Origin: a candidate division LCP-89 bacterium B3_LCP
GTDB taxonomy: Bacteria; Electryoneota; B3-LCP
Reading direction: 5' to 3'
DNA length: 64,000 nucleotides
NCBI GenBank assembly: GCA_005223185.1
Contig: NJBN01000013.1
Span: 1 to 64,000 of the forward strand
Positions 11,174 to 32,175 of this stretch are shown piece after piece (position 1 is the first letter of the stretch; each line of letters begins with the position of its first letter). The position numbers and the translations under genes are program-made. The notes beneath the pieces are model-generated. The model was not told the DNA's origin and searched no databases. It saw only the letters and a program-made list of their open reading frames with translations.

Positions 11174-13093
11174 TTACTTCATCAATACCATTTTGCCTGC
11201 TGCGGAAAAGTCTCCGGCTTGTATGCGGTAGATGTAGATCCCAGAAGCAAGCTCAGATCCATTGAACGTCACTTCATGCGCACCCGCATCCCGCCAACCG
11301 TTGACCAATTCGGTGACCAAACGTCCGGAAATGTCGTAAACCGTCAGTTTAACAAGGCTTGCATCCTGCAACTGGAAGCTGATAACTGCACTTGGGTTGA
11401 AGGGATTGGGATGCAACTCTGTAGCAATCAACTTAGATTCACTGTCGGTTGTACCTTCGATTGTGATGGTATAGTAATTACTGTAGGTGGTATTCTGATT
11501 GATGGAAGTATCCACTGCCTTTACCCGAACTTCTATGACATCTCCTGGTTGAACAATACCTGCTGGCGTTCCCCGATAATAGACGGCAAATGGTTCGATA
11601 AGCTCCATATCAATATCTGGCTGAGTGATTCCGTTTATCGCGTATTCTGCAGCGACCTGACTGATCCAGCGATCATCCAGCGCGTATGCTTTGAAAGGGA
11701 GGGGCCACTCAGATGCTTGAATGGAGCCGAGTGGGTTAAACTCAACCGTCGGAGACTCATTATCAAGTCCAACATAGAAGTGATGCGGATTCCCTTCACC
11801 GATATAAGGATGATTTTCTACTCTTCCCGATCCGTCCTCGGCTTCTAAGTAGTAGTAGATATTCGTGTCATCCGGCTGTTGGGGAATTTCTCCGTAGTAG
11901 ATATCATCTCCAGCGAAAGTCATGGCTATGGGATTGTAACTGCCACCTTCAGGTTTCCACATGATCACCGGGGGTGCGATTAACGCTTCATTACTGTAGG
12001 GGTGGATGTCGGCTTCCAGGTAGTAATTGTTACCATCATTTTCCCGGTCGTGGATGGGGATATGCACGATGCGCAGCATGTATGGATCGGTCAATTCATG
12101 GGTTCTACAGTGTAGGGCATCTAAGCTCCCCATCCAGTTGTGATCAAATCCCCGTACATCGTATCCAGGAAGTGCATCCTCCCAGGTCTGCAATGCCAGT
12201 GCATCTAACGGATCACCGAACTGGGGTACTAACATCATATCATTCAGGAAGAGTGAATTGATATAATTCGTATTAAGCGTTTCTTGGATACGGATAACTT
12301 CATATGGACGGCCGTATGAGCTCAATAATGTTGGCAGATATTCTGCCATCGCTTCCAATGTGGGATTAGGTGGATTGATTTGCCTGACCATCACTCTGCC
12401 TGGATCGATCAATTTCGCCCAGCAGTCAATGTGTTCGACGAAAATGCCAGGGGTCCAACCCAACCAGTCCTGCAGGAAGATATAATTCTCAATTCCCAGG
12501 TATTCCTGTACCAACGCCTCGATCTCCGGTATTGTATATAAAGGTTCATAATGATATGCTCCAGTGGTAGACATAGCCACACCCATGCCGTCGGTCATAA
12601 AGTTACTGGTCCCTGATTGTCCCATGGGCATATCATATATGGGCAGTCCGAATTGTGCAGCGTAAACTTCTGGAAATCTATCATCGAAAGGAAACGGCTC
12701 TACATAGATAAAGTCTATTACTGCTTGCTCATCATTGCCCGTAAAGACCAGGAATGGTGCGAAATCCCTTGTCCATCCGGAAAAAGAAGTTTGAGTAAGT
12801 ACCCATTGGCAATTAGCCATATTTACACCTTCGCGTTCGAAATACTGATAGCCCTGATTGTACATCGTTGAATCATCAACTACGGTTACCACATCTACGT
12901 GCATGGAAATTTCAATGACCATTTCGATGGGTACCCACAGAGGGTAGGTAATCAGCACACCTGAATTCGGCTCCCATTCTGCAGGATCGACAACAGGTTG
13001 CGGTGGTGGCTGTGCGTTCGAAAGAATTGAACACAGAAACACAGTCAAGAGGATGCACAGTAGCCGGATTAGTGTGGAAATTGAACATTTCAT
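11174..13093 (-). CDS. Porphyromonas-type peptidylarginine deiminase family protein (paralog 1), secreted, with CTD
   Basis: Track ORF 11174..13141; likely start M17 at 13093 with upstream GGAGG. Motifs WTRDFAPF, HIDCWAKLIDPGR, DALHCRTHE; C-term HPNPFNPSAVISFQLQ..GKMVLMK. Confidence 0.92.
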   Translation of the reverse strand: MKCSISTLIRLLCILLTVFLCSILSNAQPPPQPVVDPAEWEPNSGVLITYPLWVPIEMVIEISMHVDVVTVVDDSTMYNQGYQYFEREGVNMANCQWVLTQTSFSGWTRDFAPFLVFTGNDEQAVIDFIYVEPFPFDDRFPEVYAAQFGLPIYDMPMGQSGTSNFMTDGMGVAMSTTGAYHYEPLYTIPEIEALVQEYLGIENYIFLQDWLGWTPGIFVEHIDCWAKLIDPGRVMVRQINPPNPTLEAMAEYLPTLLSSYGRPYEVIRIQETLNTNYINSLFLNDMMLVPQFGDPLDALALQTWEDALPGYDVRGFDHNWMGSLDALHCRTHELTDPYMLRIVHIPIHDRENDGNNYYLEADIHPYSNEALIAPPVIMWKPEGGSYNPIAMTFAGDDIYYGEIPQQPDDTNIYYYLEAEDGSGRVENHPYIGEGNPHHFYVGLDNESPTVEFNPLGSIQASEWPLPFKAYALDDRWISQVAAEYAINGITQPDIDMELIEPFAVYYRGTPAGIVQPGDVIEVRVKAVDTSINQNTTYSNYYTITIEGTTDSESKLIATELHPNPFNPSAVISFQLQDASLVKLTVYDISGRLVTELVNGWRDAGAHEVTFNGSELASGIYIYRIQAGDFSAAGKMVLMK

Positions 13094-13144
13094 GGATGAT
13101 TCCTCCGCTTTTTCGATAGTTTTCGGTGCGGTCGTTAGCATTCC

Positions 13145-13170
13145 GTAGTCGGGGTCGGAGGCAACCCCGA
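13145..13170 (+). repeat. REP-like hairpin GTAG-TCGGGGT-cggaggca-ACCCCGA
   Basis: Inverted repeat with 5' GTAG. Confidence 0.7.
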
Positions 13171-13182
13171 TTATTAACCATT

Positions 13183-13207
13183 GCGGGGGGAAACACCCCC
13201 CGCCTAC
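13183..13207 (-). repeat. REP-like hairpin GTAG-GCGGGGGG-tgttt-CCCCCCGC
   Basis: Perfect 8-bp stem, GTAG on minus strand. Confidence 0.75.
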
Positions 13208-29944: not shown

Positions 29945-30131
29945 TGCTGGTCCCTTCTCATCTTAAATTTCTTGGCTTAATTGGGATAGATGTTTCTTAT
30001 ATCCAGTATTCCTGGATGAACTATCATAAGTTTACTATCCATGCCATTTATTTAATTAATATACGATATGTAAAACCTGAAGTCAAGAATTATTTTGACA
30101 TATGAAAAAAATAATTCTCTTGATAAGTAAA

Positions 30132-30157
30132 AGCGATCCCGATTATTCGGGATCGCT
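30132..30157 (-). terminator. Probable rho-independent terminator of 30190..32175
   Basis: AGCGATCCCGA-TTAT-TCGGGATCGCT, 11-bp perfect stem, T-rich 3' side on minus strand. Confidence 0.75.
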
Positions 30158-30189
30158 ACTTTCAAATTCTGATTTCTTACTTCTTGATT

Positions 30190-32175
30190 CTATTTCATCA
30201 ACACCATCTTTCCTGTCTCCATAGTCGGGGTCGCCCCTGACCCCGACGCTTCCAAGCGGTAAACGTATATCCCTGAAGCAAGCTTGGATGCATCAAACGT
30301 CACCTCATGCACACCCGCATCCCGCCAGCCGTTAACCAATTCAGCTACCTTCTTTCCTGAAACATTATATACCGTTAGGTTGACCAAACTTGCATCTTGT
30401 AACTGGAAACTGAGAACTGTGATGGGGTTGAATGGATTAGGATGCAATCCAGTAGTGATCTGTTCTGATCCTCTATCTGTTGTACCTTCGATCGTGATCG
30501 TGTAGTAATCACTGTAAGTAGTATTCTGATTCACAGAAGTATCCACTGCTTTGACCCGTACTTCTATCACATCACCAGCCTGAACGGTACCCGTAGGCGT
30601 TCCACGATAGTACACGGCAAACGGCTCGATGAGCTCCATATCCACATCGGTTTGCGGTAATCCGTTAATCGAGTACTCCGCCGCCACCTCGCTGATCCAG
30701 CGATTGTCCAGCGCGTACGCTTTGAAGGGAAGGGGCCATTCCGATGCTTGTATGCTGGTAAGCGGATTGAATTCAACAATCGGCGGCTCATCGTCAGACC
30801 CGACATGGAAGTGATGCGGATTGCCTTCACCGATGTAGGGATGATTCTCCACTCTACCCGATCCATCTTCAGCTTCCAGATAGTAGTAGATATCCGTCCC
30901 ATCCGGCTGCTGGGGAATTTCACCGTAATAAATATCATCTCCTGCGAAGGTCATCGTTACAGGACTGTAACTGCCGCCCTCCGTCTTCCACATGATAACT
31001 GGTGGAGCGATTAACGGCTCATTGCTGTAAGGGTGTATGTCAGTTTCCAGATAGTAATCACTGCCATCATTCTCAAGGTCATGAATGGGAATATGCACTA
31101 TCCGCAGCATTCCCTGGTCCGCCATTTCGTGCGTCCTGCAGTGTAGAGCATCCCCATCGCTGAAAGACCACCAGTAAAAACCGTAAACTTCGTAGCCCGG
31201 CATCGCCTCTTCATATGCAACCAGCGCTAAAGAATCTGTACTCCAGTTAAATTGAGGAACGAGAACTTTGTTGTTCAGAATGAGTGCATTTGAATAGCCG
31301 ACGCCCGGCACCCGGATTATTTCATAGGGACGACCATAGGAACTCATCAACGTTTGGAAGTAATCAACCCAATCCTCAAGCCCCTGATTAGGTACCTCGG
31401 GATCAATAACGATGATGCGCTCCGGATCAAGGTATTTCGCCCACATGTCTATATGAAGGCCAGCTAGATGGGTACCAGTCAGGATAAACGTCTCGATACC
31501 TAAGTAGTCCTCGTAGGTTCCTGGAAAAGCTTCCGGCGGAGTCAGGGGATTTACCATTTCCAGCCAATCTGTTACTATGACTTTTCCCATTCCGTCGGTC
31601 ATGTAATTGCCGCCTTCGTTCCGTATCCCTGTGCTATAAACCGGAATACCCAGAGAATCTCCCAACATCACAGGAACGTCCGTACTGACATTACCTTGCG
31701 CGTACCAGAAATAGTCATTGTTGATGATCCCCAATTCATCGTTGCCGGTAAAGATGTACCAGGGACCGTAATCGCGAGTCCACCAGTCAGTCGGTGCTCC
31801 AGCTATTAAAAATGAGCAGTTTGAAGTATCGACACCTGCAAGTACATAATCGCCCAATGCCTGTTGCATCTCATTCTCGTCATCGACTACGGTCCAAACA
31901 ACACAGTCTTCAGCCATTTCGACGATGAGGTGCATGGGGAGCGGTAGCGGATAGCTTACTAATACCCCTTCTGCTGGTTCAAATTCAGCCACAGCGATGA
32001 TCGGTTCGGGTGGTGGATCATCCGTTAACCTTATTGCAGGTGCGGGATTTATTAGTGACTTTTCCAGAAGCTCTAACTTGCTCATTTCGCTATTTGCACT
32101 GGCAATATTCACGCACAAAATTATGCTTAGCAGATGGATCCCCGCCCATTTGATATTTGTGTGTAGGTAAGTCAT
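30190..32175 (-). CDS. Porphyromonas-type peptidylarginine deiminase family protein (paralog 4), secreted, with CTD
   Basis: WTRDYGPWYIFTGNDE, GGNYMTDGMG, HIDMWAKYLDPER, DALHCRTHEMADQGMLRIVHIPIHD. Confidence 0.92.
   Translation of the reverse strand: MTYLHTNIKWAGIHLLSIILCVNIASANSEMSKLELLEKSLINPAPAIRLTDDPPPEPIIAVAEFEPAEGVLVSYPLPLPMHLIVEMAEDCVVWTVVDDENEMQQALGDYVLAGVDTSNCSFLIAGAPTDWWTRDYGPWYIFTGNDELGIINNDYFWYAQGNVSTDVPVMLGDSLGIPVYSTGIRNEGGNYMTDGMGKVIVTDWLEMVNPLTPPEAFPGTYEDYLGIETFILTGTHLAGLHIDMWAKYLDPERIIVIDPEVPNQGLEDWVDYFQTLMSSYGRPYEIIRVPGVGYSNALILNNKVLVPQFNWSTDSLALVAYEEAMPGYEVYGFYWWSFSDGDALHCRTHEMADQGMLRIVHIPIHDLENDGSDYYLETDIHPYSNEPLIAPPVIMWKTEGGSYSPVTMTFAGDDIYYGEIPQQPDGTDIYYYLEAEDGSGRVENHPYIGEGNPHHFHVGSDDEPPIVEFNPLTSIQASEWPLPFKAYALDNRWISEVAAEYSINGLPQTDVDMELIEPFAVYYRGTPTGTVQAGDVIEVRVKAVDTSVNQNTTYSDYYTITIEGTTDRGSEQITTGLHPNPFNPITVLSFQLQDASLVNLTVYNVSGKKVAELVNGWRDAGVHEVTFDASKLASGIYVYRLEASGSGATPTMETGKMVLMK
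30221..30246 (+). repeat. REP-like hairpin ATAG-TCGGGGTC-gcccct-GACCCCGA inside the CTD coding end
   Basis: Encodes SGSGATPT in YRLEASGSGATPTMETGKMVLMK. Confidence 0.78.

What the first reader, a model, noticed from the sequence alone, without database searches (positions are those of the whole stretch)
11174..32175. Cluster of four secreted PPAD-like (peptidylarginine deiminase) paralogs
ORFs at 11174, 16904, 26459 and 30190 (minus) all keep motifs matching the catalytic set of Porphyromonas PPAD (Asp in TRD[FY]xP[WF], His/Asp in HID, Cys in DALHCRTH), followed by an Ig-like domain and a CTD. Only one secreted PPAD is known in P. gingivalis; four divergent paralogs within 21 kb, interleaved with other CTD proteins, suggest an extracellular citrullination (or agmatine/arginine deimination) system outside the oral pathogens. 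Substrate is inference.
Basis: partly seen in the sequence, partly recalled or inferred. Interest (0 to 1): 0.8.

Follow-up and report, generated by a model that had tools for sequence, protein, structure and literature searches.

The report
Secreted PPAD relatives with altered pocket
An uncultured bacterium carries four neighbouring genes for secreted enzymes related to the gum pathogen's protein-citrullinating enzyme PPAD; they keep the catalytic machinery but have all lost the two arginines that make PPAD act on protein C-terminal ends, so they probably act on a different, unknown guanidine substrate.

Summary
Observation confirmed. The four minus-strand ORFs (11174, 16904, 26459, 30190) are PF04371 proteins with a PPAD-type Ig domain and a T9SS tail. 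P. gingivalis PPAD is their best solved relative (E 1e-68 to 1e-73); a model of 26459 (pLDDT 93) matches it at TM 0.90. The tree puts them inside the PPAD clade, away from agmatine deiminases. The genome (Candidatus Electryoneota) also has PorU, PorV, SprA, at least 150 sorting-tail proteins and 26 gingipain-family peptidases.

Interpretation half right. PPAD relatives are widespread (FCB bacteria, Thermoplasmatota archaea) and most keep the NRPRP motif (R152/R154) that grips a C-terminal arginine, including one copy elsewhere in this genome. The window four and their clade lost both arginines and Tyr233 but keep D130, H236, D238, N297 and C351; T180 became Glu in three. The agmatine pocket is absent too. 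Changes conserved across species argue for a new specificity rather than decay, except that 11174 also lacks the essential Gly182. The four share a near-identical Ig stalk with divergent heads. The substrate is undetermined. In sediment microbes canonical PPAD genes are often beside, or fused with, gingipain-family genes.

The parts
11174..13141 (-). PPAD-like paralog 1 (655 aa): catalytic domain 12095-12985, Ig domains, T9SS CTD 11189-11413. R152/R154 replaced (YVEPFPFDDRFP); the GGN motif is changed to SGTSN, so the Gly182 equivalent is lost. Most divergent catalytic head.
16904..19372 (-). PPAD-like paralog 2 (822 aa): catalytic domain 18242-19105, Ig domains, extra Ig-like insert, CTD 16916-17143. 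Loop YPWPSVNDGDIP in place of NRPRP, EGGN in place of TGGN. Ortholog in genome G003 (L017).
26459..28408 (-). PPAD-like paralog 3 (649 aa): catalytic domain 27377-28219, Ig domains, CTD 26474-26698. Loop YWGFDHIP, EGGN. AF2 model pLDDT 93.4, TM 0.90 to PPAD.
30190..32175 (-). PPAD-like paralog 4 (661 aa): catalytic domain 31126-31926, Ig domains, CTD 30241-30444. Loop YFWYAQGNVSTDVP, EGGN.
32211..32858 (-). TetR-family regulator 35 bp upstream of paralog 4 on the same strand; homologous to the TetR at 19641.
19641..20513 (-). TetR-family regulator upstream of paralog 2 on the same strand (268 bp gap); homologous to the TetR at 32211 (E 5e-30), so a TetR-PPAD unit appears to have been duplicated.
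24590..26212 (-). Secreted endonuclease/exonuclease/phosphatase-family protein with CTD next to paralog 3; a relative also lies next to the ortholog of paralog 2 in L017.

Best explanation
The four genes are expanded, secreted members of the PPAD lineage whose active site has been rebuilt. Shown by sequence: the deiminase fold, the catalytic Cys/His/Asp/Asp/Asn set, the PPAD Ig domain, the T9SS tail, and loss of the C-terminal-arginine clamp (R152, R154, Y233) in all four. Inferred: at least the three Glu180-type proteins (16904, 26459, 30190) still hydrolyse a guanidinium group to a ureido group plus ammonia outside the cell, by the usual Cys thiouronium mechanism, but on substrates without a free C-terminal arginine carboxylate. 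My best guess is arginine side chains inside proteins or peptides, or another bulky guanidino compound, because the site lacks both the PPAD clamp and the agmatine pocket. Divergent heads on a shared Ig stalk suggest a set of related specificities. Paralog 11174 may be inactive, because it lacks the Gly182 equivalent.
For: PPAD is the best PDB relative by sequence and fold. The tree (trait columns removed) puts the four in one 10-row clade (100/95) inside the clamp-bearing PPAD clade, with AguA outside at 100/100. In the aligned sets all 149 clamp-bearing PPAD-clade rows carry T/S/A/P at position 180, while 53 of 66 clamp-less rows carry E/D/Q. In 33 Glu/Asp-type relatives the pocket shell changes together: 0 or 1 Arg/Lys in the 148-160 loop, R252 to Ile 33/33, I197 to Tyr/Trp 31/33, W343 to Phe 33/33, residues 289-291 deleted 33/33; several of these positions frame the PPAD solvent channels (PMC4487231). 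Replacement loops are conserved between species (26459 YWGFDHIP and P0002 YYWGFDHIP; 16904 and P0023/P0026). dN 0.20 against dS 2.64 (near saturation) between 16904 and L017 in the catalytic domain points to purifying selection. T9SS parts: PorU over cut-off, PorV next to it, SprA.
Against: No activity data exist. R152A in PPAD is inactive, so a clamp-less descendant could be inactive unless compensated. C239 is changed in 26459 (Thr) and 30190 (Met), and C239 mutants of PPAD keep about 8% activity or none (PMC4487231). The link of clamp loss to Glu180 rests on few independent events (5 changes of the clamp on the tree; paired test not significant).
Confidence: 0.55

Rival explanations
1. They are ordinary exo-peptidylarginine deiminases: C-terminal arginine is still the substrate, held by residues other than R152/R154/Y233.
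For: Closest relatives are PPAD-like, with the same Ig and CTD architecture; the genome encodes 26 gingipain-family peptidases that could make C-terminal arginines; a clamp-less relative in G003 lies next to a C25 gene (L107).
Against: No Arg/Lys remains in the 148-160 loop in 31 of 33 relatives of the Glu/Asp type; R152 is indispensable in PPAD (PMC4487231); the clamp is kept in 149 sampled PPAD-clade rows and in this genome's own C16 copy, so its loss looks like a real switch.
Confidence: 0.15
2. They have converged on a secreted agmatine-type or free-guanidine deiminase: the T180-to-Glu change resembles the Glu of arginine and agmatine deiminases, and small carboxylate-free guanidines would not need the clamp.
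For: Glu is present at this position in the AguA outgroup, and arginine deiminase uses a Cys-His-Glu triad (PMC3474736; matching this Glu to position 180 is my inference from residue spacing); NCBIfam agmatine deiminase models match weakly.
Against: Far below the agmatine deiminase cut-off (30-59 bits against 382); the Asp four residues before the catalytic His, which binds the agmatine amine in Medicago AIH (PMC6447857), is present in 4 of 5 AguA rows and in none of the four; the segment before the conserved Asn, where AguA has its lid, is shorter (sequences); the tree separates them from AguA.
Confidence: 0.18
3. The family is losing catalysis and serves as binding proteins or is decaying.
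For: Paralog 11174 lacks the Gly182 equivalent, and G182A inactivates PPAD (PMC4487231); several neighbouring genes are broken; C239 varies.
Against: All five catalytic residues are kept in all four proteins and in nearly all relatives; purifying selection between 16904 and L017; conserved subtype loops across species. P0052 shares the SGTSN change of 11174, so even that form is maintained.
Confidence: 0.12

Closest known systems
Porphyromonas gingivalis peptidylarginine deiminase (PPAD; PDB 4YT9, 5AK7, 6I0X)
   Same: Pentein fold, catalytic D130/H236/D238/N297/C351, following IgSF domain, T9SS CTD; 34% identity and TM 0.90 over the shared region.
   Different: R152/R154/Y233 absent; T180 is Glu in three; I197, R252 and W343 replaced in the Glu/Asp-type relatives; four tandem copies; a second Ig-like domain before the CTD.
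Canonical clamp-bearing PPAD-like proteins of uncultured FCB bacteria and Thermoplasmatota (among L017-L096, and L125 in this genome)
   Same: Same clade and architecture; the window clade nests among them.
   Different: They keep NRP(x)RP and TGG/SGG/AGG; the window clade has neither.
Agmatine deiminase / AguA (PDB 2JER, 6NIB, 3H7C)
   Same: Same pentein superfamily and Pfam model; Glu at position 180.
   Different: No Ig or CTD, a closed site with a lid, an agmatine amine-binding Asp; separate clade at 100/100.
Vertebrate PADs (PAD4)
   Same: Same chemistry; PAD4 has a more open mouth (S468 in place of Y233), allowing internal arginines (PMC4487231).
   Different: PAD4 keeps both arginines (R372, R374), needs calcium and has different domains; only distantly related.

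Membership tests
PPAD lineage (by descent) | Nests inside the PPAD clade rather than with AguA | tested here: met
   PPAD clade 100/99, AguA separate 100/100; trait columns removed
PPAD lineage (by descent) | Catalytic D130, H236, D238, N297, C351 | tested here: met
   all five in all four proteins
PPAD lineage (by descent) | IgSF domain directly after the catalytic domain | tested here: met
   alignment and Foldseek cover both domains
PPAD lineage (by descent) | T9SS C-terminal sorting domain and export machinery | tested here: met
   CTDs; PorU, PorV and SprA in the genome
PPAD as C-terminal-arginine exodeiminase | R152 and R154 binding the substrate carboxylate | tested here: not met
   absent in all four; residue roles from PMC4487231 and PMC4893104
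PPAD as C-terminal-arginine exodeiminase | Y233 of the Michaelis loop | tested here: not met
   Phe, Trp, Ala or gap at this column in the four; Gly in many clamp-bearing relatives, so less diagnostic
PPAD as C-terminal-arginine exodeiminase | Citrullinates C-terminal Arg peptides | not testable with these tools
   needs purified protein
Agmatine deiminase (AguA) | Scores above the TIGR03380 equivalog cut-off | tested here: not met
   30-59 bits against 381.8
Agmatine deiminase (AguA) | Agmatine amine-binding Asp four residues before the catalytic His | tested here: not met
   Asp in 4 of 5 AguA rows, in none of the four; role from PMC6447857
Agmatine deiminase (AguA) | Glu at position 180 (PPAD numbering) | tested here: met
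   Glu in 16904, 26459, 30190; not in 11174

The most novel reading that the evidence does not exclude
A clade of secreted PPAD descendants in Candidatus Electryoneota and relatives is a new deiminase type: loss of the carboxylate clamp with gain of a Glu/Asp/Gln near the catalytic His and a rebuilt pocket shell lets it modify internal arginines (calcium-free bacterial endo-citrullination) or an unknown guanidino substrate, with a shared Ig stalk carrying diversified catalytic heads.
Probability: 0.35. Interest if true: 0.8.

Novelty: new variant of a known kind. Interest (0 to 1): 0.57.

Why it matters
PPAD is treated in much of the literature as an oddity of oral Porphyromonas linked to rheumatoid arthritis. 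These data show it to be one twig of a large family of secreted deiminases in environmental bacteria and archaea, often beside gingipain-type proteases, where a role in using detrital protein is more likely than virulence (inference). The window adds a sub-clade that has lost the residues that define PPAD specificity while keeping the catalytic set. That makes it a natural experiment on how exo-specific deiminases change substrate, and a candidate source of calcium-free enzymes with new specificity. It also shows that naming every PF04371 protein an agmatine or peptidylarginine deiminase is unsafe.

Tried and rejected
Agmatine deiminase origin: rejected by tree, profile scores and pocket residue. 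Misalignment as the cause of the missing arginines: rejected, because no Arg or Lys occurs between the conserved Tyr and the IP/VP motif in 16904, 26459 or 30190, and only the Arg of DDRFP, at the position of Glu in DDEFP, in 11174 (sequences; counts). Decay as the general explanation: not favoured. A formal test that clamp loss and Glu180 evolve together had too few independent pairs to be significant, so I report it only as an association. A literature search combining gingipain, peptidylarginine deiminase, archaea and sediment found no paper, and the Thermoprofundales genome paper does not mention a deiminase; the library holds open-licence papers only. The metagenome scan gave no close relative with the full four-gene array, only one contig (L135) with two window-type genes.
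Full report
Observation. Each carries PF04371 and a T9SS sorting domain, and each has PPAD as its best solved relative, with E-values from 1e-68 to 1e-73 over catalytic and Ig domains, against 1e-11 to 1e-14 for the next pentein structure. The catalytic set D130, H236, D238, N297 and C351 (PPAD numbering) is intact in all four. An AlphaFold2 model of residues 48-565 of 26459 has mean pLDDT 93.4, and its top PDB matches are all PPAD entries at TM 0.89-0.91 and about 34% identity, with agmatine deiminases far behind.

Setting. I therefore place the organism in that phylum (identical ORFs in L018 and its G010 locus support the match). 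The genome holds seven PF04371 proteins: the four here, a canonical PPAD-like protein on C16, and two CTD-bearing proteins on C4 that branch outside the PPAD clade. It has PorU (744 bits, cut-off 420) with PorV next to it, and SprA, at least 150 CTD proteins (the number scored), and 26 peptidase C25 (gingipain-family) domains. Relatives in the phylum carry 13-25 C25 matches.

Family. A scan of bacterial and archaeal genomes gave 335 relatives; the best 80 include Eisenbacteria, Cloacimonadota, Zixibacteria, Bacteroidales and Thermoplasmatota. Cummings et al. already noted that pPAD-type genes are more widespread than thought (PMC8826395). In the alignment, the loop NRP(x)RP, which carries R152 and R154, is nearly constant across this family, including PPAD and the C16 copy of this genome. 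[quoted passage not shown] R152 is indispensable and R154A leaves about 30% activity (PMC4487231; PMC4893104).

The switch. All four window proteins lack both arginines and Tyr233. With the loop columns removed, the tree puts them in one clade with six relatives from G002, G003 and G010 (100/95), inside the clamp-bearing PPAD clade (100/99) and apart from AguA. The wider protein search gives the same picture: every one of 149 clamp-bearing PPAD-clade rows has Thr, Ser, Ala or Pro at position 180, whereas 53 of 66 clamp-less rows have Glu, Asp or Gln (some proteins are in both sets and rows are related). Outside the main clade, the archaeal L046 lost R152 and has Glu180, while L047 and P0118 lost the clamp without it. 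Only about five changes of the clamp are needed on the tree, so the association is suggestive, not proven. Within the Glu/Asp type (33 rows), I197 is Tyr or Trp in 31, R252 is Ile in all, W343 is Phe in all, and residues 289-291 are deleted in all. Several of these positions frame the two solvent channels of PPAD (PMC4487231). A loop that differs between paralogs but is conserved between species within a paralog (26459 and P0002; 16904 with P0023 and P0026) fits selection for several specificities. Arginine deiminase uses a Cys-His-Glu triad (PMC3474736). That its Glu corresponds to position 180 is my inference from equal spacing, not a structural superposition.

Not agmatine. The Asp that binds the agmatine amine in Medicago AIH (PMC6447857) lies four residues before the catalytic His and is present in four of five AguA rows here, but in none of the four window proteins. 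NCBIfam agmatine models score 28-59 bits against cut-offs of 382 and 483.

How the array evolved. Among the four, catalytic domains are 40-62% identical but the first Ig domain is 87-92% identical. Paralog 16904 and its ortholog L017 are 74% identical in the catalytic domain but only 79% in that Ig domain. In the Ig tree 11174 joins 26459 and 30190 (97/96) although its catalytic head branches outside them. This fits gene conversion or recombination that keeps the stalk uniform while heads diverge; the long branch of 11174 makes its exact catalytic placement unsure. Two homologous TetR genes (E 5e-30) each lie directly upstream of a PPAD gene. One metagenome contig (L135) also holds two such genes.

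Mechanism. Established chemistry for this superfamily is Cys attack on the guanidinium carbon, ammonia release, and hydrolysis to a ureido group (PMC4487231). The residues for this are present. Substrate identity is inference. Without the clamp, and with no agmatine pocket, the likely candidates are internal peptidyl-arginines or another guanidino group with no free carboxylate. Paralog 11174 is the weakest candidate for activity because its GGN motif has become SGTSN, and G182A is inactive in PPAD; P0052 shares that change.

A wider pattern. In 17 of 80 genome loci a C25 gene lies in the same stretch as the PPAD-like gene. Pfam confirms single ORFs with both domains in a Thermoplasmatota locus (L044, 1556 aa) and a Cloacimonadota locus (L081, 2396 aa). 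In L028, L031, L032 and L033 the two ORFs lie within about 100 bp on the same strand; genomes counted carry 29-38 C25 matches in 1.8-2.8 Mb, so such close pairing is unlikely by chance, though I did not run a formal test. This is the pairing known functionally from P. gingivalis, where gingipain R exposes the C-terminal arginine (PMC4893104), now seen as genetic linkage in sediment microbes. Gingipains are known from these archaea (PMC6461988), but I found no mention of the deiminase.

Noticed in passing
L044:3430-8097, L081:1333-8520; L026, L028, L031, L032, L033, L037, L046, L141, L145, L150: Gingipain-family C25 peptidase domains are fused to, or lie beside, PPAD-like domains (nearly all clamp-bearing) in Thermoplasmatota archaea, Cloacimonadota and metagenome contigs.
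   Followed up: partly
G000:C4:215537-216466 and C4:1418-2359 (L126, L127): Two further secreted PF04371 proteins with CTD and a GGAIHCTT cysteine motif; with relatives they form a separate clade between AguA and PPAD, function unknown.
   Followed up: partly
L098, L115 (sister rows L121, L123): Secreted PF04371 clade with NRPRP in which L098 and L115 have catalytic D238 changed to Asn and an AINCIT cysteine motif: possibly catalytically altered.
   Followed up: no
window 13224-15230 (-): Secreted amidohydrolase (Amidohydro_3 plus CTD) is interrupted by one in-frame TGA codon: recent pseudogene or assembly error.
   Followed up: no
window 28464-29944 (-) and 15368-16858 (-): Two more CTD proteins (one resembling HAF-repeat proteins, one resembling beta-helix proteins) are each split into two ORFs in the same cluster.
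   Followed up: no
own genome, 18 contigs: 26 C25 (gingipain-family) domains and at least 150 T9SS sorting-tail proteins in a 3.8 Mb genome, suggesting a strongly proteolytic, secretion-heavy lifestyle.
   Followed up: partly
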